Source of the DNA: Mycobacterium sp. SMC-2
Lineage (GTDB): Bacteria; Actinomycetota; Actinomycetes; Mycobacteriales; Mycobacteriaceae
Length of the DNA: 64,000 bases
Assembly (NCBI RefSeq): GCF_025263485.1
Contig: NZ_CP079863.1
Span: 2,170,001 to 2,234,000 of the forward strand
Direction: 5' to 3'
In this document: positions 7,161 to 24,213 of the stretch, in pieces
Layout: each line of letters starts with the position of its first letter
How positions within the stretch are numbered: the stretch's first letter is position 1
The notes under the pieces: model-generated
What the model was told of the DNA's origin: nothing
What the model saw: the letters and a program-made list of their open reading frames with translations, nothing else
Database searches by the model: none
Program-made: the position numbers and the translations under genes

Positions 7161-7697
7161 TCACTGGGCAGCCCGGACGAAGACGGTTTCCGCCGCCGCC
7201 GTCGCCGTCGGGCCGATCATGCCGAACCGGTTCCAGCCTAGGTCGAACTGGGTGCGATCGACCTTGGCCGATCCGGCGATCCGGATCGAGCCGTCGTCGA
7301 GCTCGGTGATCGTGGCGGACACGGGCACCGGCGCGGTGATGCCCTTGATCGTGAAGGCGGCCCGGAGGTCTGCGGACTTGCCTTCGGTCGGCTGCACCGC
7401 GGTGACGACGACGCCGATCTCACCGAAGCGCTCGACGTCGAAGAAGTCGGCCGAGCGCAGGTGCTTGTCGCGGCGGCCGATGCCGGTGTCCAGGGAGGCG
7501 GCGCGGATGTCGAGGCGGCCGTAAACCGCCCCCTTCCCCGTCAGCTGGCCGTCGCCGCTGAACTCGGTGAAGCGTCCCTTGACGTTCAGCAGGCCCCACA
7601 TGTTCGGGATCTTGAAAGTGATCGTCGAGCGGTCCGGGACCAGGTTCCACACGCCGGCCACGTCGGGATCATTCAGAAGTGTTTCCAGAGTCGTCAT
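7161..7697 (-). CDS. YceI-family lipid-binding protein
   Basis: YceI-like lipocalin-type beta-barrel protein, 178 residues. Family hallmarks are the opening AGVWNLVPDRSTITFKI, the central HLRSADFFDVERFGEI and the closing DRTQFDLGWN. The family binds isoprenoid or fatty amide ligands. No signal peptide is visible, so this copy is probably cytoplasmic. I chose ATG 7697 because GGGGG lies six bases upstream; a GTG two codons earlier is possible. It is the last gene of the accessory run that starts with the homogentisate dioxygenase-like gene, so it could carry a hydrophobic intermediate (inference). Confidence 0.88.
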   Translation of the reverse strand: MTTLETLLNDPDVAGVWNLVPDRSTITFKIPNMWGLLNVKGRFTEFSGDGQLTGKGAVYGRLDIRAASLDTGIGRRDKHLRSADFFDVERFGEIGVVVTAVQPTEGKSADLRAAFTIKGITAPVPVSATITELDDGSIRIAGSAKVDRTQFDLGWNRFGMIGPTATAAAETVFVRAAQ

Positions 7698-7730
7698 CGT
7701 CACCCCCAGCTGTCGTGGCGAATGTAACGC

Positions 7731-8120
7731 CTAGGCCAGCAACGGCGCGATCTCTGCGGGATCGAAGTACTCGTCGATCCGGTCGAGCCGGCCGTCGCCG
7801 CCCACCCTGATCACGATGCAGACCCGCATCGAGATCGATTGGCCGGCATGGCCGATGGCGTGCAGGACGTGCTGCTGGACGAAGCCGCCCTCGAAGAATT
7901 GCCGGTCCAGGACTTCGTAGTGGCGCTCGGTGGTCGCGGTGATGAACCAGTCGATCACCCGCAGGGCGCGGGCCTTGCCGTCCTCGCGGCGCGCGCCGAC
8001 CCGCCAGACCGCGATGTCGTCGCTCCACATCCGGTCCACCGCCGCGAAGTCGCCCTTCTCGATCGCCGTGAACAGGCGGTCGGCCGCGTCGGCAACGATT
8101 TCCGTATTCGCAGCGGGCAT
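7731..8120 (-). CDS. NTF2-like/SnoaL-fold protein
   Basis: 129-residue protein of the NTF2-like superfamily (SnoaL, limonene-epoxide hydrolase type). It starts with ADRLFTAIEKGDFAAVDRMWSDD and shows the typical cone-fold ending DGRLDRIDEYFDPAE. The acidic DEYFD near residue 118 is common in family members with hydrolase or isomerase roles, but I cannot assign a substrate. It sits nine bases after the DUF6285 gene and is likely cotranscribed with the kinase and dehydrogenase upstream. The start is ATG (MPAANTEIV). Confidence 0.82.
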   Translation of the reverse strand: MPAANTEIVADAADRLFTAIEKGDFAAVDRMWSDDIAVWRVGARREDGKARALRVIDWFITATTERHYEVLDRQFFEGGFVQQHVLHAIGHAGQSISMRVCIVIRVGGDGRLDRIDEYFDPAEIAPLLA

Positions 8121-8128
8121 GCTCGCTC

Positions 8129-8467
8129 CTATTCGCAGTCGTATCCGGGGTGGGCGGCCGCCAGCCGGCGCCGCACCAACGTGCGCAGGCAGGCGGTGAC
8201 TTCGAGGCCTCGCCCGTCCATCTCGCCGGCCCGTATCGCGGCGGCAAGCTCTTCCTCGTCGGCGAAGCCCAAGTCGGCCAGCGCCGCACGGGATTCGGCC
8301 TCGCTCTCGTCGAGCAGTTCGCGCTCGACGATGCGCAACGCGTTGGCGGCCACCCTCGCGTGGAAGTTGACCTGCCCGCTGGTCGCCGCCCGCACGTCGG
8401 TCTCCAGGAATTCGGCCACCGCGGTTACGAGTTCGGCCGCGAGCGGGCGGCCGTACGGTCCGATCAT
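8129..8467 (-). CDS. DUF6285 protein, LvaB-like kinase partner
   Basis: 112-residue helical protein of the DUF6285 family. The core MIGPYGRPLAAELVTAVAEF opens the protein and ANALRIVERELLDES is the central helix. In Pseudomonas putida a protein of this family (LvaB) is needed with the kinase LvaA to phosphorylate 4-hydroxyacyl-CoA (known from the family, recalled). The ATG shares a base with the kinase stop (TGATG), so the two are translationally coupled, as expected for complex partners. The assignment rests on family resemblance and neighbourhood, not on a search. Confidence 0.78.
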   Translation of the reverse strand: MIGPYGRPLAAELVTAVAEFLETDVRAATSGQVNFHARVAANALRIVERELLDESEAESRAALADLGFADEEELAAAIRAGEMDGRGLEVTACLRTLVRRRLAAAHPGYDCE

Positions 8468-9453
8468 CACGCGGCCCCTTCGAGCAGGTCGAGCAGGTCC
8501 CACTCGGTTTCGCACACGCGGCGACCGATCGTGGCCAGCTCCACCGAGCGGAACTGACCGGTCAAATGCCGCTCCGCCTGGTAGCGGCAGATGACGCCCC
8601 ACCGCAGCGTCGCCAGCACCAGCCACCAGTGAAACGCCACCCGGTCGACGCCAGTCCCGCCGGCCTGTTCGTAGTCCCGCAGGAAGCTCTCGACGCTGCC
8701 GAGGCCGCCGGCGCCGAGGCTGGCCGGGGCGCCGAAGCGCCAGGCGCGGATGCAGAACCAGGCCAGGTCGTCGTAGGGGTCGCCGCGGTGCACCAACTCC
8801 CAGTCGAGGACGGCGGCGAGGCGGGACCCGTCGACGATGAGGTTGCCCATCCGGTAGTCCCCGTGCACCAGCACGTCCCCCGACGGTTCCGGCCTGCGGG
8901 CCTCCAGCCAGCGAAACGCCCATTCGAAGGTGGCCGTGGTGTCGCCCATGGCGTCGAGCCGCTCGCGCCACTGCGCGAGCGGATCCTCGCGGGCCAGATC
9001 GGGGATGTTCGGGTCGGCGCGGTGGATGGCCGCCAGGGCCTGCGCGCATTGCCGCAGCAGAGTCGCGCGGGCCGCCTGCCCGCCCGCCTCGTCGAGCTGA
9101 CGCTGGATGCGCCGGACGATGGTCTCGCCCGCGATCGCGTCGCAGATCAGAAACGGATTGCCCAGTGCGGCAGGCGAATCGCCGGCGATGAGGACGTGGG
9201 GGACCGGGGCGCCTGCGGCAGCGGCGGCGGCCTGGGCGCGCGCCTCCAGCTCCATGCCGGCGTGCACGTCGTCGGGCGCGCCGGTGCGCAGGATCAGGGC
9301 TCGGCGCCGGTCACCGGTGACCGCGTCGAACGCCCACGTGGAGCGGCTGGCGCCGCCGGTCAGGGCGCGCAGGTTTTCCACCGCGACATCGGCGCCCAGC
9401 ACGCTCCCCAGTTTCAAGGCGAGTCGCGAGGCCAGCTCCTCGGTCGGCGTCAC
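8467..9453 (-). CDS. APH/ACAD10-type phosphotransferase, LvaA-like kinase
   Basis: Aminoglycoside-phosphotransferase-fold kinase, 328 residues. Visible motifs are LTGGASRSTWAF (nucleotide loop, near residue 31), the catalytic VHGDYRMGN (Asp near 197) and VLDWELVHRGDPYDDLAW, which supplies the Mg-binding Asp. This subfamily is not antibiotic-modifying. Its relatives next to acyl-CoA dehydrogenases (LvaA, ACAD10/11 N-terminal domain) phosphorylate 4-hydroxyacyl-CoAs. Here it lies between an acyl-CoA dehydrogenase (ATGA overlap) and a DUF6285 gene (TGATG overlap). This context makes a 4-hydroxyacyl-CoA kinase the best guess. Confidence 0.85.
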   Translation of the reverse strand: MTPTEELASRLALKLGSVLGADVAVENLRALTGGASRSTWAFDAVTGDRRRALILRTGAPDDVHAGMELEARAQAAAAAAGAPVPHVLIAGDSPAALGNPFLICDAIAGETIVRRIQRQLDEAGGQAARATLLRQCAQALAAIHRADPNIPDLAREDPLAQWRERLDAMGDTTATFEWAFRWLEARRPEPSGDVLVHGDYRMGNLIVDGSRLAAVLDWELVHRGDPYDDLAWFCIRAWRFGAPASLGAGGLGSVESFLRDYEQAGGTGVDRVAFHWWLVLATLRWGVICRYQAERHLTGQFRSVELATIGRRVCETEWDLLDLLEGAA

Positions 9454-10685
9454 TTGCCAAACTTAAACAGCCGCTGCGCCACCCGGCGAATCTGGATCTC
9501 CTCGGCTCCCTCGGTGATCCGGTAGCGACGGTGGTGGCGATAGATGTGCTCGAACGGCTCGTGCCGGCTGTAGCCCAGGCCGCCGAAGATCTGCATGGCT
9601 CGATCGGCGGCGTCGCAGACGAGTCGATTGGCCCGATAGTTGGCCATCGACACCTTGTCCGAGACCTCCATGTGGTGGTTCCGGTCCAGATGCCAGGCCG
9701 CGTACTGAACCAGCAGCCGCACCATCTGGGCCTCGGTCTGCAATTCGGCCAGCGGCCATTGCACGGCCTGGTTGACCGACAGCGGCTTGCCGAACACGGT
9801 CCGCCGCCCGGCGTATTCCGCGGCGCGGTCGATGCAGTACTGTGCCGCACCCAGGCTGCTAGCCGCCTGCCGAATCCGGTTCTCGTGCAGGAACGTCTGC
9901 GCGACTTCCAGGCCGCGGTCCACCTCGCCGAGCACCGCGTCACCGGGCACCCGGACGTCGGTCAGCTGAACCTCGCCGTGATCGGTCGGCATGTTGAACA
10001 TCCACCAGTAGTAGGGGACGTCGAACCCCGGCGCGTCCGTCGGCACCAGAAACGCCGTGATGCCCCGCGCCTGGCCCGGCTCACCGGACGTGCGAGCGAA
10101 GACCAGGTCGTGGGTCGCGCGGTGGACGCCGGTGTTGAACCGCTTGGCGCCGTTGATCACCCAGCCGTCGCCGTCGGCTTGTGCGCGCGTCTGGAGCCAG
10201 GTGGCGTCCGAGCCGTGCTGCGGCTCGGTCAGCCCGAACGCCATGGAGCGTTTCCCGGTGATCAGCGCCTCGGACCAGAGCCGCCGTTGCTCCTCGGTGC
10301 CGAAGCGCTCCATCATGATCACCTGCGGGAAGTTGCCGACGATCGAGGACTCGTTCTGCAGGTCGTTGTGCAGGCCGAGGCCCTTGTGCGCCAGGTGTTC
10401 CCGGATGACGGCCATGTCGACGTTGGTGCCGTCACGGCCACCCAGCGAGGCCGGTAGCCCGTACCGCAGCCAGCCCGCCTTGTCGGCTCGCCGGCGCATC
10501 TCGGCGAGCAGGTCCTCCCACTCGCGCGTCGGGATGCCGTCGTTGTCCCAGTCGGTGCGGGCATGCTCGCGGCGCTTGTCGAAATACTGGATGTGTTCGC
10601 GCTCCAGCGGTTTGATCTCCGCCTCGATGAACTCGTCCATCTCCGTGAGCACAGCCGGAAGGTGTTCGGGCAGTGTGAAATCCAC
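9450..10685 (-). CDS. Acyl-CoA dehydrogenase, LvaC/ACAD11-like
   Basis: Flavin-dependent acyl-CoA dehydrogenase-fold enzyme, 411 residues. FAD- and substrate-binding segments are AFGLTEPQHGSDATW (near 175) and GKPLSVNQAVQWPLAE (near 298). The C-terminal YRHHRRYRITEGAEEIQIRR closes the fold. The start is GTG, with AGGAGA five bases upstream. In ACAD10/11-type systems the dehydrogenase eliminates phosphate from the 4-phospho-acyl-CoA made by the kinase and converts it to a 3-hydroxyacyl-CoA; that is the proposed role here, by neighbourhood. An ordinary alpha,beta-dehydrogenase remains possible. It starts nine bases after the TetR gene. Confidence 0.9.
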   Translation of the reverse strand: MDFTLPEHLPAVLTEMDEFIEAEIKPLEREHIQYFDKRREHARTDWDNDGIPTREWEDLLAEMRRRADKAGWLRYGLPASLGGRDGTNVDMAVIREHLAHKGLGLHNDLQNESSIVGNFPQVIMMERFGTEEQRRLWSEALITGKRSMAFGLTEPQHGSDATWLQTRAQADGDGWVINGAKRFNTGVHRATHDLVFARTSGEPGQARGITAFLVPTDAPGFDVPYYWWMFNMPTDHGEVQLTDVRVPGDAVLGEVDRGLEVAQTFLHENRIRQAASSLGAAQYCIDRAAEYAGRRTVFGKPLSVNQAVQWPLAELQTEAQMVRLLVQYAAWHLDRNHHMEVSDKVSMANYRANRLVCDAADRAMQIFGGLGYSRHEPFEHIYRHHRRYRITEGAEEIQIRRVAQRLFKFGK

Positions 10686-10694
10686 AGTTTTCTC

Positions 10695-11324
10695 CTAAGT
10701 CTCCTTGCCGCTGCCGTAGAGAGTTTTCTTCCAGATCGTCGACAAGGTGGCAATGGCGTCCCGGTCGCTGATCTTGATGCCCAGGTTGGAGGGGCCGACG
10801 AAGACGGTGGTGAAGTTCTCGAACAGCAGGGCGATGGCCGCCGCTGTGTGTTGCGGGTCGAGTTCGGTTCCGTAGCCCTGCTCCTGGGCGCGGCGCACCG
10901 AGGCGGCGACGATGTCCATGCCAAACCGGCGGAATTCGTTCTGGACACCCGCGAATCGGCGCTGGGTGGCGGCGAGCTGGGCAACGGCGATCATGATGCC
11001 GATGTTCTGCTTGAACATGTTCCAGTAGCCGGTGACCACCGCGGTGAAGAACGCGTCGTCGTCGGGCGATGCCGGTAGCTCGAGGCTCAGCCCGGACGGG
11101 GTCAGGACGTCGTGCAAGAACGATTCGGCCAGGGCGGCGAGCAGGTCTTCCTTGTCGGCGAAATACCGGTAGAACACCGCGGGCGACTTGCCCGCCGCCG
11201 AGGTGATGTCGGCCAGCGTAGTGCCGTGAAAACCCCTTTCCGCGAACAGCTTCCGGGCGGCCTGCTCGATGGCCTGCCTGGTCTGGCGGCCCTTGGCCGT
11301 CAGCGTGTCCGGGGCGGGCATCAT
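10695..11324 (-). CDS. TetR-family transcriptional regulator
   Basis: 209-residue TetR repressor. The N-terminal helix-turn-helix is clear: RQAIEQAARKLFAERGF, then TTLADITSAAGKSPAVFYRY (residues about 15-57). A divergent ligand-binding domain follows. The gene is embedded in the operon, overlapping the HMG-CoA-lyase-like gene by ATGA and followed by the dehydrogenase, so it probably senses a pathway CoA ester or acid and controls the run autogenously (inference). A candidate target is the AT-rich dyad before the first gene at 15709-15738. Confidence 0.93.
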   Translation of the reverse strand: MMPAPDTLTAKGRQTRQAIEQAARKLFAERGFHGTTLADITSAAGKSPAVFYRYFADKEDLLAALAESFLHDVLTPSGLSLELPASPDDDAFFTAVVTGYWNMFKQNIGIMIAVAQLAATQRRFAGVQNEFRRFGMDIVAASVRRAQEQGYGTELDPQHTAAAIALLFENFTTVFVGPSNLGIKISDRDAIATLSTIWKKTLYGSGKET

Positions 11325-12217
11325 GTCCGGATCCCGTCGCCGGCGCGCAGCAAAGCGCTCGGCAGGGCATGGCCGACAACGGATTTGGCGACCTCGGCCG
11401 CGGAGATGGCGGCCTGCAGGTCGACGTCGACGTCGATGCCGCTGTCGGCCAGCAGGTACACCAGGTCCTCGGTGGCGATGTTGCCGGTGGCGCCCGGCGC
11501 GAACGGGCAACCGCCCAGCCCGCCCACCGAGGCGTCCAGCCGGGTCACCCCGGAGCTGACCGCGGCATAGGCGCTGGCCAGCCCGGCGCCGCGGGTGTTG
11601 TGGAAATGCCCGCCCAGCGGCAGGTCGCCGATCACCGGACGCAGCTGTGCGATCAGCGAACTCACCCGCCCCGGGGTGGTGGTGCCGATCGTGTCGGCGA
11701 TCGACAGGCGGTCGGCGCCGCGGTCGCGGGCGGCCGCGGCGATGTCGAGCACCCGCTGCGCCGGCGTGGGCCCTTCGAACGGTGAGTCCCACGCGGTGGC
11801 GATGATCACTTCGACGGTGACGTGACCGTCGCGCGCGATGGCCACGATCTCGTCGATCGCCGCGGTGGCCTCCGCGCTGGTGCGCCCGACGTTGGCCTTG
11901 CTGAACGTGTCGTCGGCGGCCACCACGTACTCGATCGAGCGCAGCCCCGCCGCGACGGCCCGCTTGGCCCCGTTCGGGCTGGCCACCAGGGCGGAGAACT
12001 CGATGTCGGGGTAGTCGCGCAGGTGCGCGGCGAGCTCGGCGGCGTCGGCCATCGACGGCACCTTCGACGGCGAGACGAACGCGGTGGCCTCGACCTCGCG
12101 AACGCCGGTCGCGGCGATGGCGGCCAGCAGTTCGAGCTTGGCGTCCAACGGGATCGGCGCTTCGATCTGCAGCCCGTCGCGCAGCGCGACCTCGCGGATG
12201 GTCACGTGTGTGTTCAC
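11321..12217 (-). CDS. HMG-CoA lyase-like protein
   Basis: DRE-TIM metallolyase of the HMG-CoA lyase family, 298 residues; such enzymes split 3-hydroxy-3-methylglutaryl-CoA to acetoacetate and acetyl-CoA. Visible hallmarks are REVALRDGLQIE at the N-terminus (catalytic R/D), TAFVSPSKVPSMAD, SIADTIGTTTP, GHFHNTRGAG (metal-binding HxH) and VGGLGGCPFAPGATGN, which has the mobile-loop Cys. The start is GTG, overlapping the CoA-transferase stop as GTGA. In this operon the real substrate might be another branched 3-hydroxyacyl-CoA. Confidence 0.92.
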   Translation of the reverse strand: MNTHVTIREVALRDGLQIEAPIPLDAKLELLAAIAATGVREVEATAFVSPSKVPSMADAAELAAHLRDYPDIEFSALVASPNGAKRAVAAGLRSIEYVVAADDTFSKANVGRTSAEATAAIDEIVAIARDGHVTVEVIIATAWDSPFEGPTPAQRVLDIAAAARDRGADRLSIADTIGTTTPGRVSSLIAQLRPVIGDLPLGGHFHNTRGAGLASAYAAVSSGVTRLDASVGGLGGCPFAPGATGNIATEDLVYLLADSGIDVDVDLQAAISAAEVAKSVVGHALPSALLRAGDGIRT

Positions 12218-13419
12218 AGCACCTCCTCGGCCCGCAGCTCCTCGAGCTCCTCGGCGCTCTTGCCCAGCAGCCCGATGTAGACGTCGTCGTTGTGCTGGCC
12301 CGGGCGGGCGGGGCCCGCGTTGCGGACGCTGCCCGGCGATTCGGAGAGCACCGGCACGATGCCCGGCCCCAGCACGTCGCGCCCGATGCGTTCGTCGAAG
12401 TGTTCGACCAGCATGCCGCGGGCCCGCAGCTGCGGATCGTTGACCACCTCCGCGACCGTGTTGATCGGCCCGGCGATCACCCCTGCGGCACTCAGGGTTT
12501 CGATGATGTCCCCCGGCGGGCGCTCCGCGGCCCACGCCCCGATGATCTCGTCGAGCTCGTCCTGGTTGCGGCCGCGGGCGGCGTGCGTGGCGAACCGGTC
12601 CTCGGTGGCCAGCTCGGGGCGCCCCATCGCCTTGCACAACCGGGCGAAGACGGTGTCCTGGTTTGCGGCGATCACCACCCACGAGCCGTCGGCGCTGCGA
12701 TAGATGTTGGACGGCGCGATGCCCTCCAGCCGGGTGCCCGACGGTCCGCGGACCACGCCGCCGACGTCGTAGTCGGGAATGGTGGATTCCTGGACGGCCA
12801 AACAGGATTCGGTCAGCGCGACGTCCACCACCTGGCCGCGCCCGGTGATGCCGCGGCGGTACAGCGCCGCCAGCGCGCCCTGCGCGCCGAACATGCCGGC
12901 CAGGGTGTCGCCGAGCGAGAGCGCGAGCCGGGGCGGCGGTCCGCCCGGGAAACCGTTGAGGTGGCGCAGTCCGCTGGCCGCCTCGGCCACCGAGGCGTAG
13001 CCGGCCTTGTGCGCCTCGGGCCCGGTCTGCCCGTAGCCGGACACCCGGACCAGGATGATGCCCGGGTTTCGGGTACTGAGCACGTCGTAGCCCAGGTCCC
13101 ATTTCTCCAGCGTCCCCGGGCGGAAGTTCTCCACGACGATGTCGGACTTCTCGACGAGCTCACAGAACAATTCGCGGCCGCGCGGGCGGCGCAGGTCCAG
13201 GGTGATCGCTCTCTTGTTGCGCGCGTGCACCGTCCAAAAGACATGCTGCCCGTCGACCTCGGCCTGGCCCCAGGTGCGCAACGGGTCCGGGGCACCGGGG
13301 GGTTCCACCTTGATGACGTCGGCGCCCATGTCGCCCAGCAGTCGTCCGGCGAACGGGCCCGCGATCAACGTGCCCAGTTCGAGCACCCGCACTCCGTCCA
13401 GTGGCCCGGCGACGCTCAT
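12214..13419 (-). CDS. CaiB/BaiF type III CoA-transferase
   Basis: Family III CoA-transferase, 401 residues, which moves CoA between carboxylic acids through an aspartyl-CoA intermediate. The N-terminus LDGVRVLELGTLIAGPFAGRLLGDMGADVIK (in parts) and KRAITLDLRRPRGRELF are diagnostic. The catalytic Asp lies in the ESCLAVQEST-preceding VVDVALTE segment near residue 190. The ATG overlaps the downstream end of the hydrolase gene as ATGA. It probably activates or exchanges CoA on an acid of the pathway ending in the HMG-CoA lyase-like enzyme (inference). Confidence 0.94.
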   Translation of the reverse strand: MSVAGPLDGVRVLELGTLIAGPFAGRLLGDMGADVIKVEPPGAPDPLRTWGQAEVDGQHVFWTVHARNKRAITLDLRRPRGRELFCELVEKSDIVVENFRPGTLEKWDLGYDVLSTRNPGIILVRVSGYGQTGPEAHKAGYASVAEAASGLRHLNGFPGGPPPRLALSLGDTLAGMFGAQGALAALYRRGITGRGQVVDVALTESCLAVQESTIPDYDVGGVVRGPSGTRLEGIAPSNIYRSADGSWVVIAANQDTVFARLCKAMGRPELATEDRFATHAARGRNQDELDEIIGAWAAERPPGDIIETLSAAGVIAGPINTVAEVVNDPQLRARGMLVEHFDERIGRDVLGPGIVPVLSESPGSVRNAGPARPGQHNDDVYIGLLGKSAEELEELRAEEVL

Positions 13420-14591
13420 CCGGCGCCCGCGAAGTCGTGGCGGACCAGCCAGTCGGTGACGATGTCGACGGCCGCGCGCAGCTTGTCGCGCTGGTCGGGG
13501 CCCGCGTAATAGTGTGTGGCGCCGGGGATTTCGTGCATCTCCTTGTCATGGTGCCCGATCGCCTCGAAGAGCCGCCGGGTGTGGCTGGGCGTGCAGGCAT
13601 CGTCGGCCAGGTTACCGATGACCAGCGCCGGGACCGCGAGGTCGGCACCGCAGGCTACCCCATCGCCGCGGGCGTCGTCGTAACTCCATTGCGAGAGCCA
13701 GCCGCGCAGCGTGGAGAACCGCGCCAGCCCCACCGGGCTCATGTTCACCACTTGAGGATCCCCCAGGTAGCAGGTTCCCGGGGTGCGTTCGTTGGGATCG
13801 ACGGTCGGGTCCAGCCAGCGCGGGTCGGCCATGGTGCCGTGCACCACGAAACAGAACTCGTCTTGCGGGCGCCCGGCCGCCTTTAACTCGGCGAGCTTGT
13901 CCCTGACCCACGCGGTGATGCGCCGGTTGCGCATCACCTGTGCGCTGCGGTAGCGGGCCAGGAATTCCTGGCTGTAGGGCGGCTGGTTCGGGTTGTCCGG
14001 GTTGTAGAGGTCCAGCTCGGGATCGCGCTTGGTGGGGTCGGATTCGTCGAGGATCGACGCGTCGAGCCATTCGGTCAGCGTGCCGTGCCGGCTGATGTGC
14101 GCCGCCAGCAGCATGATGCCGTCCGCGGGGGTCAGGTCCAAAGCGGTCAGGTCGGGGCCGTCACCGGACGGGCTCGACGTGATGGTGGGGTGCTGGGCCT
14201 GCTGCTGGTAGAACATCGACAGCGAGCCGCCGCCACTCCACCCGGCCAGCACCACCTTGGAATAGCCCAGCCGCTTCTTGGCGTCCTTGATGCACTCGCC
14301 GAGGTCCTCGACCACCTTCTCCATCAGCAGCGCCGAGTCGGTGCCGCGGAACCGGCTGTTGCAGTAGATGACGTGATGGCCGGCCCGGGCCAGCGCGCCC
14401 GTCATCGGCAGGTAGGCGCCGCCCCCGATCGGGTGCATGAACACCAGCACGGTGTCCGAGGGCTTGTCCTTCGGCCTGAGCAGGTAGCTCTCCAGCACGG
14501 TGATCTCGGCCAGCCCGCCGTAGACGTCGCGGACGGCGGAATTGTTCTGGAACGCAACGAGATAGGGGATGCGTTCGTACTCGTGCTTCAT
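13416..14591 (-). CDS. Alpha/beta hydrolase
   Basis: 391-residue alpha/beta-hydrolase. The oxyanion strand HPIGGG is near residue 80. The nucleophile elbow is LAGWSGGGS (Ser about 147). The acid lies in GNLADDACTP and the catalytic His in PGATHYYAGP near the C-terminus. A long insertion between the nucleophile and the acid (residues 165-290) forms a cap. It has no signal peptide. It is the second gene of the run, directly after the homogentisate dioxygenase-like gene (TGATG overlap), in the place where a ring-cleavage-product hydrolase would be expected. The substrate is unknown; an esterase or thioesterase is also possible. Confidence 0.85.
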   Translation of the reverse strand: MKHEYERIPYLVAFQNNSAVRDVYGGLAEITVLESYLLRPKDKPSDTVLVFMHPIGGGAYLPMTGALARAGHHVIYCNSRFRGTDSALLMEKVVEDLGECIKDAKKRLGYSKVVLAGWSGGGSLSMFYQQQAQHPTITSSPSGDGPDLTALDLTPADGIMLLAAHISRHGTLTEWLDASILDESDPTKRDPELDLYNPDNPNQPPYSQEFLARYRSAQVMRNRRITAWVRDKLAELKAAGRPQDEFCFVVHGTMADPRWLDPTVDPNERTPGTCYLGDPQVVNMSPVGLARFSTLRGWLSQWSYDDARGDGVACGADLAVPALVIGNLADDACTPSHTRRLFEAIGHHDKEMHEIPGATHYYAGPDQRDKLRAAVDIVTDWLVRHDFAGAG

Positions 14592-15682
14592 CAGTGTTGT
14601 CCTAGGTCGTGCGCCAGTACCTCGGCCGACGGGGTCAGTCGCCGGCGGGTGTCGACGGCGATCACCTGCCAATCGACGCGGGAGTACTCGTCGAACTTGC
14701 GGCGCGCCCGTTCCCGCGCCTTCTCCGGTGCGCCGTGGTGAACGCCCTGCGGCGCATGGGAAATCAGACCCGGCGGCATCGGGATGCCGTAGAGCGAGCC
14801 GCCGTGAAAGAAGGCGATCTCGTCATAGTCGACGTTGCGGTGGTACCACGGCGTGCGCTCGGTGCCGGCCACACCTTCGGCGGGCTTGGGCAGGAAGTTC
14901 ATCACGTAGACGCCGGTGGCCTGCATGAACAGGTGCACCGTCGGTGGCAGGTGCACGCTGTCGGAGGTGACCACGTTGTAGTCGGCGATGTTGAAGGTGA
15001 ACGCGAAGTTGTCACCCCGCCAGCCCTCGACGTCGAGCGGATTGTGTTGGTAGTAAAGCGTTGTCGGGCCGCCCTCGTGGATAAGCCGCACCTCGTACTC
15101 GTCGCGTCCGTCGTCGTCGACGGGTGCGGGGTCGGGGATGGTGGCCTGCGACGGGTCGAAGGGGAAGTGCCGGCCCAGCGGACCGGGCGGCGGCGCCCGG
15201 AACTCGTCGGTCGCCTCGACCATGAGCAGCGTCGTCTCGCTGTCGGGCACCTGGCGCCAGGTGCACGCCTTGGGCAGGTAGATCCAGTCGCCGTCGCGGT
15301 AGCGCAGCGGCCCGAACTCGGTCTCGACCAGACCGCCGCCCTGGTGCACGAAGCACAGCAGGTCGCCGTCCACGTGGCGGGTGTAGAACGGCATCGGCTC
15401 GTGGCGGCGGCTCAACAGGATTCGGCAGTCGGCGTTGCTGAACATCAGCAGCGGACCGCCGTCGGCGTCGGTGGCGTCACTGGGCTTGAGCTCGCCGGCC
15501 AGCACGTCGATGGGCCGCAGCGGGCCGACCGCGCGGTAGGCGGTGGGGTCGTGGCGGCGATAGAGGTTCGCCGTGCGGCCGGTGAATCCGCCCCGGCCCA
15601 GCTCGTCGTCCTTGAGCCCGTCGAGATCGGCGTGGAGTCGGCGTGGCGTTGTCCCTTTGCGCAAGTGGACGAAGGATTCCAT
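14591..15682 (-). CDS. Homogentisate 1,2-dioxygenase-family protein
   Basis: Cupin-type Fe(II) ring-cleavage dioxygenase of the HmgA family, 363 residues, shorter than the roughly 430 of classical HmgA. Conserved parts are the double-cupin N-terminal region with HQGGGLVETEFGPL and DGDWIYLPKA. The C-terminal metal site is TPWYHRNVDYDEIAFFHGG (His and Glu ligands), with ISHAPQGVHHG supplying the last His. It is the first gene of the 7161-15682 run. No fumarylacetoacetase or maleylacetoacetate isomerase lies beside it, so the substrate may differ from homogentisate. The ATG is preceded by an AT-rich promoter-like region. Confidence 0.87.
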   Translation of the reverse strand: MESFVHLRKGTTPRRLHADLDGLKDDELGRGGFTGRTANLYRRHDPTAYRAVGPLRPIDVLAGELKPSDATDADGGPLLMFSNADCRILLSRRHEPMPFYTRHVDGDLLCFVHQGGGLVETEFGPLRYRDGDWIYLPKACTWRQVPDSETTLLMVEATDEFRAPPPGPLGRHFPFDPSQATIPDPAPVDDDGRDEYEVRLIHEGGPTTLYYQHNPLDVEGWRGDNFAFTFNIADYNVVTSDSVHLPPTVHLFMQATGVYVMNFLPKPAEGVAGTERTPWYHRNVDYDEIAFFHGGSLYGIPMPPGLISHAPQGVHHGAPEKARERARRKFDEYSRVDWQVIAVDTRRRLTPSAEVLAHDLGQH

Positions 15683-19282: not shown

Positions 19283-20686
19283 TCAGATGACGACAACGCC
19301 CTCGGCCACGCCGATGGCCCGCAGGTCGCGATACCAACGCTCGACCGGGTGTTCTTTCGTGAAGCCGTGGCCGCCGAGCAGCTGCACGCCGTCCAGGCCG
19401 ATCTGCATGCCCTTGTCGGTGCCCAGCCGCTTGGCCAGCGCCGCCTCGCGGATGAAGGGCAGGCCCTGCTCGGCGCGGGCCGCACCGCGCCAGGTGATCA
19501 GCCGCAGCCCGTCCAGCTCAATGGCGATGTTGGCGCACATGAACGCGACGGCCTGACGATGAGCGATCGGCTCGCCGAAGGCCTCGCGCTCCTTCACGTA
19601 GGGAACGACGTAGTCGAGCACCGCGTGCGAGGTGCCCACCGCCAGCGCCGCCCAGCCCAGCCGGGACAGGGCGATCGCCTCCGAGTAGTCGTCGTCGGTG
19701 GCCTCGTCCTCGCCCAGCCGCGCGCTCAGCGGGACCGTGACGCCGGAGAGCTCCACCTGGCCCAGCGCCGCTGCCCGGATGCCCATGCTCGGATCCGCCT
19801 TGACGCTAAGGCCTTTCGTCGACGATTCGACGACGAACAGGGCCGGCTTGCCATTCAGCTGCGCGCCGACGATGAACAACTCGGCGTCGGCCGCCGCCGG
19901 GACCAACGACTTCACGCCGTCGAGGCGGTAGCCGCTCGGCGTGCGCACCGCGGTGGCCTTCAGGTGGGTGGGGTCGAACAGAGGTTGCGGCTCGGCGATC
20001 GCGACGCAGGCCTGGGGAACGTTCTCCCCGGCGAACTCGTGCAGATAGGTGGCCTGCTGGTCCGCGCTGCCCCAGTGGGTCAGCGCGGAGGCCACGCCCC
20101 CCGGGGCCAGGATGGGCAACGCCAGACCCATGTCGCCGTAGGCGAGCGCCTCGGCCACCAGCACGTTGGTCACGCTGGAGCGGTGTGCGGCGATGCCGTC
20201 GAAGTCCTCGGGGATGTTGATGGCGGTGATGCCCAACTCCGCGGCCTTGGCGATCAGGTCGGGCGGGTAGCTCGCCGCCTCGTCGGCGTCGTGCGCCGCG
20301 GGCCGCAACACTTCCTCGGCGAATTCGTTGAGGGTCTCGACGATCATCTTCTGGTCGTCGTCGGGCGTCAGGTCGAAGTAGTCCTTGCCGCTCGACTTCA
20401 GCCGGGTGGGCCCGCCGCGCAGGTTCTGCAGCCGTTTGAACTGCCGGGAGGCATTGGCGGCCGTGGAGAAGATCGTCTTGGTGCCGTACTGCAGCCCGCG
20501 ATTGACCGGGTCGCGCAGCCTGTACTTGTCCAGGAACTCCTGGCCCATGAGCGGGGTGAGCAGCGCGATGGCGATGTCGACGCCCGTGCGCTTGTGTGGT
20601 TGCAGTCCGACCGCGCTGTGGTGGTCTTTCCGTTTGCGGCGGGAGCGGGCGGATTTTGAGTTTGAACCGGAACGAGTGTCGGTCAT
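19283..20686 (-). CDS. fadE24: Acyl-CoA dehydrogenase FadE24
   Basis: Acyl-CoA dehydrogenase-fold protein, 467 residues, longer than usual because of a basic N-terminal ~70 residues before the dehydrogenase domain. CVAIAEPQPLFDPTHLKA takes the place of the usual TEPxxGSD FAD motif, a divergence expected for the non-catalytic-looking half of a heteromer. The C-terminal LDGVQLLGGHGFTKEHPVERWYRD is well conserved. Size and position match FadE24 (Rv3139). First gene of the fadE24-fadE23 pair. Confidence 0.93.
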   Translation of the reverse strand: MTDTRSGSNSKSARSRRKRKDHHSAVGLQPHKRTGVDIAIALLTPLMGQEFLDKYRLRDPVNRGLQYGTKTIFSTAANASRQFKRLQNLRGGPTRLKSSGKDYFDLTPDDDQKMIVETLNEFAEEVLRPAAHDADEAASYPPDLIAKAAELGITAINIPEDFDGIAAHRSSVTNVLVAEALAYGDMGLALPILAPGGVASALTHWGSADQQATYLHEFAGENVPQACVAIAEPQPLFDPTHLKATAVRTPSGYRLDGVKSLVPAAADAELFIVGAQLNGKPALFVVESSTKGLSVKADPSMGIRAAALGQVELSGVTVPLSARLGEDEATDDDYSEAIALSRLGWAALAVGTSHAVLDYVVPYVKEREAFGEPIAHRQAVAFMCANIAIELDGLRLITWRGAARAEQGLPFIREAALAKRLGTDKGMQIGLDGVQLLGGHGFTKEHPVERWYRDLRAIGVAEGVVVI

Positions 20687-20766: not shown

Positions 20767-21552
20767 CTAATTCACAAGCGCCAGTGACCGGAGCACCCGC
20801 TCGTGCAGCGGCCCGTTCGTCGCCACGGCGCTGCCGCGGTGCGGCCCCGGGACGCCGTCCAGGCCGGTCATCGTCCCGCCGGCCTCGCGCACCAGGATGT
20901 CGAGCGCGGCCAGGTCCCATACCGACACCTCGGGTTCGGCGGCGATGTCGACGGCCCCCTCGGCCACCAGGCAATAGGACAGGAAATCGCCGAAGGCGCG
21001 CACCCGCCACACGGCGTCGGTCAGCGCGATGAAACGTTCCCGCAGCCCGCGCTCCGCCCACCCGGACAGGCTCGAGAACGAGAGGCTAGCCGAATCCAGT
21101 TGTGCCACAGAGGAAACCGACAGCCGGCGCGGTGTCGCGTCGTCGACCGCGACGAAGGCGCCCCGGCCGCGCGCCGCCCACCACCGACGCTGGAGCGCGG
21201 GGGCGCTGACGACCCCGACCACCGGCAGACCGTCCTCGAGCAGCGCGATCAGGCTGGCCCACACCGGCACGCCGCGCACGAAGTTCTTGGTGCCGTCGAT
21301 GGGGTCGATGATCCACTGCCGCCCGGTGAAAGCGGTGGTCCCGCCGAACTCCTCGCCGACGACGCTGTCGTGCGGCCGTTCCCGGCCCAGCGCTGCCCGC
21401 AGTTCGGATTCCACCCCGCGATCGGCGTCGGTCACCGGGGTCAGGTCGGGCTTGGTGTCCACGTGCAGGTCGAGCGCCCCGAACCGGGCGGAAGTCAGCG
21501 CGTCCGCGCGGTCGGCCAGCGTCAGCGCCAACGTCAGATCGTCCTGACTCAT
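20767..21552 (-). CDS. hisN: Inositol-monophosphatase-family phosphatase, HisN-like
   Basis: IMPase-superfamily Mg-dependent phosphatase, 261 residues. Metal ligands are visible in VVGEEFGG (Glu about 67), [13 protein letters not shown] (Asp/Asp near 82-85) and [17 protein letters not shown] (Asp near 210). The ortholog-like gene at this place in M. tuberculosis (Rv3137) is annotated as a monophosphatase assigned to histidinol-phosphate hydrolysis. The sequence alone cannot separate this from inositol phosphatase activity. The ATG lies opposite the start of the divergent small membrane gene with no spacer, so at least one of them must be leaderless or share promoter sequence with coding DNA. 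Confidence 0.88.
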
Positions 21553-21909: not shown

Positions 21910-23037
21910 TCACCCGGCGGCGGGCGGGCGCGCCATCACCGTGATGCGGACGCCGTAGCGCGGGACGACGCCCGACGCCCGCGAAACGGTGCCCCCCGGC
22001 AGGCCCGGCGCGCCGGGCACCGCGGTCGGCGATCCGGCCAACTCGTCGCCTCCGGGGAGGGTGGGCAGGCCGCCGCCCGGCAATGCCGTGACCGAACCGC
22101 CCGCGGGCGCGGTCCAACCGGCCGGCACCGACATCGACCCGATCGTTCCGGCGCGGGCGAGCGTCGCGGTGATGTTGCCCAGGCCCGCACCGCCGCCAAG
22201 GCTCGGCGCACCGCTCAGCGGAGGCGCCGGCGCCGCCTCGATCGCCGAGGCCGGCAACATGCCCAGGTCGTGTTCGGCCTGAATGATTCCGGCGGGCATC
22301 GCCTCCATCTTCCACATGCCGTTCAGGGAAGTGCCGACCGCGAGGATGGCGTTGAGGACGGTGAAGTCGCTGGGCAGGATCGACGGTCCAGCGGCCGCCG
22401 CCGTCTGCGCCGGAAGGGTTGGTGCCGCGGCGATGACCTGAGTCACCGGGCTGGCGCCGGCGCCGTTGACCGCCTGGGCTACCGCGTCGGTCTGCGCGGT
22501 CAGGCCTGCCGGGTCCGTCGTGCGGCGCGGCGGGGAGAACGGCCTCAACCGTGTGGCCAGCGCCGAATTGGCCGCGTAGCCATACATCGCTGCGGCGTCC
22601 TGCGCCCAGTACTCCGCGTACTCCGCCTCGGTGGCCGCGATGGCCGCGGTGTTCTGGCCGAAGAAGTTCGTCGCCACCAGCACCGCCAGCCGGACGCGGT
22701 TGGCGGTGACGTCCGCGGGCGGCACCGTCATCGCATACGCCAGCTCGTAGGCCGCGGCGGCCGCGCGGGCCTGCATCGCCGCCTGCGTCGCCTGCTCGGC
22801 GGTTGTCTGCAGCCAATGCATATAGGGCGCGGCGGTGGCCGACATCGACTGTGCGGCGGGCCCACGCCAGTATGAGCCGGTGAGGCCGGACAGCACCGAT
22901 TCATAGGTCTGCGCCGTGGTGTCCAATTCGGCGGCCAGCGAATCCCAGCTCCCCGCGGCAGCCAGAAGTGACCCCGAACCCGGGCCGCAGTACATCCGGG
23001 CGGAGTTGATCTCTGGCGGCAGAAACGCGAAATCCAT
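21910..23037 (-). CDS. PPE family protein, SVP subfamily
   Basis: PPE protein, 375 residues, exported by a type VII (ESX) system in mycobacteria. The N-terminal PPE domain (about 1-180) opens with FLPPEINSARMY and has WRGPAA in place of the WxG turn. The C-terminal region holds the SVP signature GSMSVPAGW near 305. The tail ends RYGVRITVMARPPAAG, nearly the same as in the tandem neighbour. The PE partner is not encoded beside it. Together with 23095-24213 it is a tandem duplicate at the position of PPE50/PPE51 in M. tuberculosis. Confidence 0.94.
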   Translation of the reverse strand: MDFAFLPPEINSARMYCGPGSGSLLAAAGSWDSLAAELDTTAQTYESVLSGLTGSYWRGPAAQSMSATAAPYMHWLQTTAEQATQAAMQARAAAAAYELAYAMTVPPADVTANRVRLAVLVATNFFGQNTAAIAATEAEYAEYWAQDAAAMYGYAANSALATRLRPFSPPRRTTDPAGLTAQTDAVAQAVNGAGASPVTQVIAAAPTLPAQTAAAAGPSILPSDFTVLNAILAVGTSLNGMWKMEAMPAGIIQAEHDLGMLPASAIEAAPAPPLSGAPSLGGGAGLGNITATLARAGTIGSMSVPAGWTAPAGGSVTALPGGGLPTLPGGDELAGSPTAVPGAPGLPGGTVSRASGVVPRYGVRITVMARPPAAG

Positions 23038-23094
23038 TGCGGTGCAGCGTATTGAACAGCGGACCGAAGAGACGGTCCGCGGCCTGGCGACCGG

Positions 23095-24213
23095 TCAGCC
23101 GGCCGCCGGCGGGCGCGGCATCACCGTGAGCCGGACGCCGTACCGGGGCGGGACGCCTATGCCCGCGGAGCGCGCGGCCGCACCACCCGGCATCCCTGGG
23201 TAACCGGGGTAGCCCGCCGCGACGGCCTCGTCGGTCGTTCCCGGGAGCAGGGTCATGCCGGCGGGCTCGAAGGCCGTGACGTGGCTGGTCGACGGTGCTG
23301 CCCAGCTGGCCGGCACGGACATCGGTCCGATGGTCCCGGCGCGGGACAGGGTGGCGCTGATGTTGCCCAGACCGACGCCACCGCCGACTTGGGGCGCCGC
23401 GGTCAGCGCCGGGGCCAGTGCGGTGGGCGCCGCGGCCGCCGCCTTGGGCAACATGCCCAGATTGTTCTCCGCCCCAATGATTCCCGAGGTGAACGCCTCC
23501 ATGTAGTAGGTGCCGTTGAGCGCGGTGTTGGTCGCCTGGATGGCGTCGAGGATGGTGAAATCGCTGGGCACGACCGCCGGATCGGTCGCCGCCGCGGTGA
23601 CCGGCTGATTCGCCGTAATCTGCGGGTTAGCGGTGAGGGCGCTATTGACCGCCCGGGTGACCGAGGCGTTCTGAGCGGCCAGCCCGGAGGAGTTGGTGGA
23701 CTGATTCGGGGAGAAGTAGCGCGGCAGCTGCGTCGCCGCCCCCGAGGAGGCGGCGTAGCCGGACATAGCGGTGGCGTCCTGGGCCCAATAGTCGGCGTAC
23801 TGCGCCTCGGTGGTCGCGATCGCCCCGGTGTTCTGGCCCAACACATTCGTCGCCACCAGCGACGCCAGCAGTGTGCGGTTGGCCGTGATCGCCGGTGGGG
23901 GCACCGTCATCGCGAATGCCTGCTCGTAGGCCGCCGCAGCGGCCCTGGCCTGCAAGGCCGTTTGCTTGGTCTGCTCGGCGGTGGCCAGCAGCCAGCCGAC
24001 ATAGTGGGCGGCCGAGGCCGCCATGGCCTCCGCTGCCGGGCCGCGCCACTGCAAGTCGAGGCCCGAAAGCACCGACTCATACGACTCGGCCGTGGTGGCC
24101 AGGTCGGCCGATAGCGAGTCCCAGCTCCCCGCGGCGGCCAGCAGTGAGCCGGAGCCTGGGCCGGCGTACATCCGGGTGGAGTTGATTTCGGGCGGGAGAA
24201 ATGCGTAATCCAT
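23095..24213 (-). CDS. PPE family protein, SVP subfamily (PPE51-like)
   Basis: PPE protein, 372 residues, sharing the architecture and most motifs of the gene immediately downstream: FLPPEINSTRMYAGPG at the start, LQWRGPAAEAMAA, EAQYADYWAQDA near 150, GPMSVPASW near 300, and a RYGVRLTVMPRPPAAG ending. The position beside the hisN/fadE24/fadE23 block matches PPE51 (Rv3136), which I recall as involved in carbon-source uptake across the mycomembrane; that role is not shown here. It is 57 bp upstream of the second copy. Confidence 0.94.
   Translation of the reverse strand: MDYAFLPPEINSTRMYAGPGSGSLLAAAGSWDSLSADLATTAESYESVLSGLDLQWRGPAAEAMAASAAHYVGWLLATAEQTKQTALQARAAAAAYEQAFAMTVPPPAITANRTLLASLVATNVLGQNTGAIATTEAQYADYWAQDATAMSGYAASSGAATQLPRYFSPNQSTNSSGLAAQNASVTRAVNSALTANPQITANQPVTAAATDPAVVPSDFTILDAIQATNTALNGTYYMEAFTSGIIGAENNLGMLPKAAAAAPTALAPALTAAPQVGGGVGLGNISATLSRAGTIGPMSVPASWAAPSTSHVTAFEPAGMTLLPGTTDEAVAAGYPGYPGMPGGAAARSAGIGVPPRYGVRLTVMPRPPAAG

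What the first reader, a model, noticed from the sequence alone, without database searches (positions are those of the whole stretch)
8129..10685. LvaC-LvaA-LvaB-like triad: possible 4-hydroxyacyl-CoA kinase pathway in a mycobacterium
Seen: acyl-CoA dehydrogenase, APH-fold kinase (VHGDYRMGN) and a DUF6285 protein follow each other with 4-bp and 1-bp overlaps, so they are coupled. Known: in Pseudomonas putida LvaA (APH-like) with LvaB (DUF6285) phosphorylates 4-hydroxyvaleryl-CoA and LvaC (acyl-CoA dehydrogenase fold) converts it to the 3-hydroxy form; mammalian ACAD10/11 fuse kinase and dehydrogenase for the same chemistry. Inference: this mycobacterium degrades gamma-hydroxy acids or lactones (host lipid peroxidation products, levulinate-like acids) by this route.
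Basis: partly seen in the sequence, partly recalled or inferred. Interest (0 to 1): 0.75.

Follow-up and report, generated by a model that had tools for sequence, protein, structure and literature searches.

The report
Second type of kinase-coupled fatty-acid enzyme trio
A mycobacterial trio of genes makes a kinase, its small helper subunit and a fat-burning-type enzyme; it resembles a known bacterial and mammalian trick for removing hydroxyl groups from fatty acids, but the last enzyme has a clearly different active site, so its exact reaction is open and testable.

Summary
In detail: an acyl-CoA dehydrogenase (ACAD), an APH-fold kinase and a 112-residue DUF6285 protein lie on the minus strand with 4-bp and 1-bp overlaps. 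They end a coupled eight-gene mycobacterial operon. Kinase and DUF6285 are of the LvaA/LvaB kind (34% and 32% identity to an lvaRABCDE-ordered locus). The ACAD is not an LvaC/ACAD10/ACAD11 type: at the catalytic Asp and the three phosphate-contact positions (R626, H634, R637 of ACAD11) it has Glu, Phe, Gln and Ser. None of 88 such ACADs, window included, has any of the three; they form their own clade. LvaC-type ACADs sit elsewhere in 10 of 10 mycobacterial genomes tested. This second ACAD type is still tied to kinase-DUF6285 pairs: 13 of 13 Actinomycetota and 29 of 30 Pseudomonadota genomes with it carry DUF6285; the thirtieth has a diverged fused copy. Kinase and DUF6285 are fused in 17 of 80 loci. 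Most likely it is a second version of phosphorylation-driven hydroxyacyl-CoA processing, with unknown substrate. The 4-hydroxyacyl assignment is not supported as stated.

The parts
9450..10685 (-). ACAD of the separate 'W type' (motif FLHENRIRQAASS, catalytic-position Glu392 in ITEG): the dehydrogenase of the trio
8467..9453 (-). APH-fold kinase, LvaA-like, of the DUF6285-paired kinase clade (catalytic D199, N204, metal-binding D217; WRFG and GRR motifs)
8129..8467 (-). DUF6285 protein (LvaB-like), predicted kinase subunit
   Evidence: PF19802 86 bits; fused to the kinase in 17 of 80 loci with the same ACAD type
10695..11324 (-). TetR-family regulator inside the operon
   Evidence: PF00440; present in 29 of 30 mycobacterial loci
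11321..12217 (-). HMG-CoA lyase-like protein
   Evidence: PF00682; NF004283 269 bits over cut-off 246; 30 of 30 mycobacterial loci
12214..13419 (-). Class III (CaiB-type) CoA transferase
   Evidence: PF02515 417 bits; 30 of 30 mycobacterial loci
13416..14591 (-). Alpha/beta hydrolase (start taken at ATG 14591, 1-bp overlap with the gene before)
   Evidence: weak Pfam/NCBIfam hydrolase and lactonase matches (searched from 14615); 29 of 30 loci; start read
14591..15682 (-). Homogentisate 1,2-dioxygenase-like protein, first gene of the coupled run
   Evidence: TIGR01015 50 bits, far under its cut-off of 511; PDB 3zds E 5e-12; 29 of 30 loci
7731..8120 (-). SnoaL-like protein just downstream; recurrent neighbour, not shown to belong
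   Evidence: 26 of 30 mycobacterial loci
7161..7703 (-). YceI-like protein downstream; recurrent neighbour, not shown to belong
   Evidence: 26 of 30 mycobacterial loci

Best explanation
The trio is a second type of kinase-DUF6285-ACAD module. The kinase, with DUF6285 as an integral subunit, phosphorylates a hydroxyl group of a hydroxyacyl-CoA. The neighbouring FAD-dependent ACAD takes up the phosphoacyl-CoA and turns it into an enoyl-CoA for beta-oxidation. The ACAD does so with a Glu base and a pocket that differs from the Asp/R-H-R pocket of LvaC and ACAD10/11, so it probably handles a different hydroxyacyl-CoA or releases phosphate differently. In mycobacteria the substrate is probably a hydroxy or lactone-derived acid, supplied by the hydrolase and CoA transferase of the same operon and finished by the HMG-CoA lyase-like enzyme. 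Shown here: family membership, operon, co-occurrence, natural fusion, separate ACAD clade. Inferred: every chemical step and the substrate.
For: Co-occurrence: 13 of 13 Actinomycetota (of 296 searched) and 29 of 30 Pseudomonadota (of 398 searched) genomes with the W-type ACAD have DUF6285, against 13 of 283 and 10 of 368 without it (Fisher p 6e-16 and 2e-34). The thirtieth has a diverged fused kinase-DUF6285 next to the ACAD (L261). The link holds when the genes are apart: in 6 of the 13 Actinomycetota genomes they are on different contigs or over 1 Mb apart. Kinase and DUF6285 are one protein in 17 of 80 loci, and one natural fusion models as a compact unit (pTM 0.91). In a kinase tree of 132 rows, all 112 DUF6285-paired kinases (with 2 unpaired) form one clade of 114 (SH-aLRT 93, under the tool's mark of 95), in which kinases next to W-type and to LvaC-type ACADs are mixed. 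So the same kinase-DUF6285 module serves both ACAD types, which suggests one kind of kinase product. The catalytic kinase residues are intact in 132 of 132 rows. Enoyl-CoA hydratases (8) and acyl-CoA ligases (7) are among the commoner of 171 neighbour proteins scanned outside mycobacteria.
Against: No activity of any W-type ACAD or its kinase is known to me. The residues that hold the phosphate in ACAD11 are replaced by F265, Q273 and S276 in the window, and none of the three is present in 88 of 88 W-type ACADs; a phosphoacyl substrate must therefore bind in an unproven way. 18 of 80 W-type loci have neither kinase nor DUF6285 nearby; of the 25 loci without DUF6285, 20 genomes were searched and 3 had none. 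Most neighbour proteins outside mycobacteria fall in no recurrent family. Genomes in the tallies share ancestry, so the Fisher values overstate independence; completeness is not told.
Confidence: 0.5

Rival explanations
1. One reading: a standard LvaABC pathway. The kinase makes 4-phosphoacyl-CoA and the ACAD eliminates phosphate exactly as LvaC/ACAD10/11 do, for gamma-hydroxy acids or levulinate-like acids.
Against: No Asp base, no R626/H634/R637; Ala or Leu at these three was the most disruptive in ACAD10/11 (PMC12440821 section 7; a Glu in place of the Asp was not reported in the parts I read). Separate clade. 10 of 10 mycobacterial genomes tested hold 1-3 LvaC-type ACADs elsewhere. No SDR or ligase in the operon.
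Confidence: 0.15
2. The ACAD is an ordinary alpha,beta-dehydrogenase passing electrons to ETF (oxidative, not redox-neutral). The kinase acts before or after it, for example 4-phosphoacyl-CoA is oxidised to 4-phospho-2-enoyl-CoA and phosphate then leaves to give a 2,4-dienoyl-CoA.
For: Canonical Glu at the base position in 88 of 88. Positions 626, 634 and 637 are uncharged as in many ordinary ACADs. The first half of this route is the one proposed for ACAD10 (PMC11342911 section 13).
Against: Ordinary ACADs do not need a dedicated kinase, yet the link to kinase-DUF6285 is near-absolute in two phyla. The conserved motifs ENRIRQAAS and FEHIYRHHRRYRITEG are unlike the other ACADs aligned.
Confidence: 0.2
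3. The kinase-DUF6285 pair phosphorylates a hindered (for example tertiary) alcohol that is then dehydrated, as 25-hydroxy steroid kinase does for sterol side chains; the ACAD works on the resulting acyl-CoA.
Against: Only about 20% identity; APH-fold kinases with other substrates score nearly as high. Nothing in the trio points to sterols.
Confidence: 0.1

Closest known systems
LvaA-LvaB-LvaC of the Pseudomonas putida levulinate operon (passages in PMC6692424; Rand et al. 2017 not held)
   Same: Three-gene module; DUF6285-paired APH kinase; an ACAD-fold enzyme. LvaB was reported to interact with LvaA in a pulldown (PMC6692424 passage), matching the fusions seen here.
   Different: The ACAD is of another clade with Glu and RxRQ instead of Asp and HCMR; no LvaD/LvaE; different operon partners.
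Mammalian ACAD10/ACAD11 (PMC12440821 passages and section 7; PMC11342911 passages and section 13)
   Same: Kinase plus ACAD chemistry; predicted ACAD fold closest to ACAD11.
   Different: No kinase-ACAD fusion and no Asp/R-H-R site in the window; LvaB is not mentioned in either paper's main text (0 occurrences). ACAD11 was not in the kinase tree; by sequence the window kinase scores 30-34 bits against it and 154 bits against the lva-type kinase of L258 (different programs).
25-hydroxy steroid kinase of Sterolibacterium denitrificans (PMC8449060 abstract; PDB 9fsg, 9ft5)
   Same: APH-fold kinase that turns a hydroxyl into a leaving group.
   Different: Sterol substrate; about 20% identity. Whether it has an ACAD or DUF6285 partner was not looked at.

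Membership tests
LvaC / ACAD10 / ACAD11 ACAD type | Catalytic Asp (D753 of mouse ACAD11) | tested here: not met
   Glu392 in the window; Glu in 88 of 88 W-type ACADs
LvaC / ACAD10 / ACAD11 ACAD type | R626, H634 and R637 (HCMR motif) for the phosphate | tested here: not met
   F265, Q273, S276; none of the three in 88 of 88
LvaC / ACAD10 / ACAD11 ACAD type | Groups with LvaC-type sequences in a tree | tested here: not met
   Separate clades, support 100 and 100/100
LvaA-type kinase | Kinase catalytic Asp, Asn and metal Asp | tested here: met
   D199, N204, D217; all three in 132 of 132 rows
LvaA-type kinase | Clade of DUF6285-paired kinases that includes lva-type loci | tested here: met
   114-row clade, SH-aLRT 93; 34% identity to the kinase of L258
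LvaA-type kinase | Phosphorylates 4-hydroxyacyl-CoA | not testable with these tools
   Needs an enzyme assay
LvaB / DUF6285 | PF19802 above its cut-off, next to the kinase | tested here: met
   86.2 bits against 28.1, 1-bp overlap
lva levulinate operon | SDR (LvaD), ligase (LvaE) and sigma-54 regulator LvaR in the cluster | tested here: not met
   Absent from 15682..8129; a TetR, CoA transferase, HMG-CoA lyase-like, hydrolase and dioxygenase-like protein instead

The most novel reading that the evidence does not exclude
Bacteria and some archaea have two separate enzyme types for removing hydroxyl groups from acyl-CoAs by phosphorylation: the known Asp/HCMR type (LvaC, ACAD10/11) and this Glu/RxRQ type, both fed by the same DUF6285-kinase module. 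The second has its own phosphate site, perhaps the conserved RHHRRYR stretch beside the catalytic Glu, and its own substrate class.
Probability: 0.4. Interest if true: 0.8.

Novelty: new variant of a known kind. Interest (0 to 1): 0.6.

Why it matters
It separates two ACAD types that annotation and operon resemblance would lump together. It shows that DUF6285, a term on which no held paper was found, is very probably a kinase partner, and that in the two phyla sampled most DUF6285 genomes (42 of 65) carry the new ACAD type. It offers a compact three-protein system, sometimes fused, for finding an unknown hydroxyacyl-CoA pathway; the ACAD is present in 188 of 198 genomes of the Mycobacterium group searched. 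It also warns against reading an 'aminoglycoside phosphotransferase' label as drug resistance.

Tried and rejected
Searches that led nowhere: window DUF6285 against PDB sequences (one match, E 0.4). DUF6285 by tblastn in plasmid records (3 and 6 records). 'DUF6285' in papers (0); levulinic + mycobacterium + 4-hydroxyvaler (2 papers; only the listing was seen). Two searches on operon and ACAD words (23 papers of which 10 listed; 2 papers) and '4-phosphoacyl-CoA' (14 papers, 8 listed) showed nothing on this trio in titles or abstract starts, apart from the ACAD10/11 papers; other bodies were not read. Neighbour families outside mycobacteria: a tally of 171 of 244 picked neighbour proteins gave no universal fourth gene.

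The haloarchaeal 157-170 aa proteins in the DUF6285 place match the DUF6285 profile only weakly (probability 11%): left open. A larger tree test holding W and LvaC types together did not finish. In that tree the W type branches nearest L010, L009 (second ACAD; both Glu) and L271, the LvaC type nearest L273 and L290 (both Glu). L271 shows Asp at the base column and Arg at 637 but not R626 or H634, so Asp alone does not mark the LvaC type. Chance as a cause of the trio was rejected by conservation. The kinase as an aminoglycoside resistance enzyme was judged unlikely: APH(3') model 43.5 bits against a cut-off of 205. Coordinates of the predicted structures were not given, so the pocket could not be inspected.

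Full report
THE OBSERVATION. On the minus strand the ACAD runs 10685..9450, the kinase 9453..8467 and DUF6285 8467..8129, with GTGA and TGATG overlaps. Pfam gives Acyl-CoA_dh, APH (111 bits) and DUF6285 (86 bits, cut-off 28). The trio ends a longer run of coupled genes: a homogentisate-dioxygenase-like protein (15682..14591), an alpha/beta hydrolase (from 14591), a CaiB-type CoA transferase, an HMG-CoA lyase-like protein and a TetR regulator, with overlaps of 1-4 bp up to TetR and a 9-bp gap before the ACAD. In 30 loci of mycobacterial name, CoA transferase, HMG-CoA lyase, ACAD, kinase and DUF6285 are present in 30 of 30, and the dioxygenase-like protein, the hydrolase and TetR in 29 of 30 (two further look-alike loci labelled Bifidobacterium were left out). 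The closest named DUF6285 is from Mycobacterium nebraskense (96%).

THE KINASE AND DUF6285. No PDB relative of DUF6285 was found by sequence (one match, E 0.4). One unnamed pseudomonadotal genome (G712, locus L258) has, in order, a divergent PrpR-like sigma-54 regulator, APH kinase, DUF6285 (72.5 bits), ACAD, SDR and AMP-binding ligase. This is the order of lvaR and lvaA-E, PP_2790-2795 in PMC6692424 (passages; the number of LvaB is not given there). P. putida KT2440 itself was not searched. The window kinase is 34% (154 bits) and DUF6285 32% (24 bits, E 2e-4 for the pair) identical to its counterparts there. In a kinase tree of 132 rows, all 112 DUF6285-paired kinases and 2 unpaired ones fall in one clade of 114 (SH-aLRT 93); 8 of 9 kinases next to LvaC-type ACADs without DUF6285 lie outside it. 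DUF6285-paired kinases share residues that unpaired ones mostly lack, such as R239 (100% against 35%), W285 (100% against 15%) and E315 (95% against 10%; 112 and 20 rows). In 17 of 80 loci kinase and DUF6285 are in one reading frame. The model of one such fusion is confident (mean pLDDT 92.8, pTM 0.91). DUF6285 is thus very probably a kinase subunit.

LVAC-TYPE ACADS ARE ELSEWHERE IN MYCOBACTERIA. 10 of 10 mycobacterial genomes tested have 1-3 ACADs similar to the Azospirillum protein at E <= 1e-60 (17 matches). 17 of 17 have R626, H634, R637 and Asp in the alignment. None has DUF6285 within the roughly 1.5 kb fetched on either side; 5 of the 17 loci show an APH kinase. Each of these genomes has exactly one DUF6285 match, beside the window-type ACAD.

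CO-OCCURRENCE. In 296 Actinomycetota genomes, 13 have the window-type ACAD and 26 DUF6285; all 13 have both (one of the 13, G080, by a weak match, E 3e-6). In 398 Pseudomonadota genomes, 30 have the ACAD, 39 DUF6285 and 29 both. The exception has a diverged kinase-DUF6285 fusion beside the ACAD that the Pfam search missed (L261). The centre genomes G001 and G030 were chosen for having the ACAD; without them Fisher p is 7e-15 and 2e-33. Shared ancestry makes these values too strong, but the pairing also holds where the genes are unlinked: in 6 of 13 Actinomycetota genomes they are on different contigs or over 1 Mb apart. Of the 10 Pseudomonadota genomes with DUF6285 and no window-type ACAD, 8 have an LvaC-type ACAD within about 0.2 kb of the kinase-DUF6285 pair. 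Of the 13 such Actinomycetota genomes, 3 have one within about 1 kb, some stretches being cut by contig ends. Two genomes with the window-type ACAD (G017, G028) carry a second DUF6285 pair within 2 kb of an LvaC-type ACAD, and L262 (G360) has both ACAD types within 3 kb of one pair. So one kinase-DUF6285 module goes with either of two ACAD types.

RESULTS AGAINST A TIGHT LINK. Of 80 window-type loci, 55 have DUF6285 and 62 a kinase nearby; 18 have neither, some of them short contigs. Of the 25 loci without DUF6285, 20 genomes were searched: 17 have DUF6285 somewhere, 3 do not. Haloarchaeal loci L002, L004, L005 and L014 have a kinase and, in the DUF6285 place, a 157-170 aa protein of doubtful kinship (probability 11%); L009 has neither by these profiles.

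NOVELTY. No held paper contains the term DUF6285. The other paper searches listed none that by title or abstract start treats a trio with this ACAD type. Only open-licence papers were searched, lists were partly capped, and Rand et al. 2017 was not held, so prior mention cannot be excluded. I rate it a new variant of a known kind.

Noticed in passing
window 21910-24213 (minus strand): Two adjacent PPE/PPE-SVP genes (PF00823 224 and 214 bits), upstream of a HisN-like phosphatase (20767-21552) and a second ACAD (19283-20686).
   Followed up: no
L013 (Azospirillum sp. B510 plasmid pAB510b), 6366-9706: An IS21 element lies between two genes annotated as histidine phosphatase right after an LvaC-type triad; Thermus thermophilus HB8 (L123) has the same order with one uninterrupted phosphatase gene.
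   Followed up: no
L058, L068, L069: Contigs labelled Bifidobacterium breve MAG carry mycobacterial-like or acidimicrobial-like copies of the ACAD in the tree, so these labels look wrong.
   Followed up: partly
L002, L005 (haloarchaeal plasmids): The ACAD-kinase pair sits beside hydantoinase genes and an LLM flavin-dependent oxidoreductase, in L005 also acetone carboxylase gamma and acetoacetate decarboxylase family genes, a possible substrate hint.
   Followed up: no
G860:C12:71456-72685: The one window-type ACAD among the listed matches that shows an in-frame TGA (part of the matches is not listed).
   Followed up: no
window 14591-15682: Homogentisate-dioxygenase-like protein scoring far under the family cut-off (50 against 511 bits); its own function is open.
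   Followed up: partly
   Followed up: no
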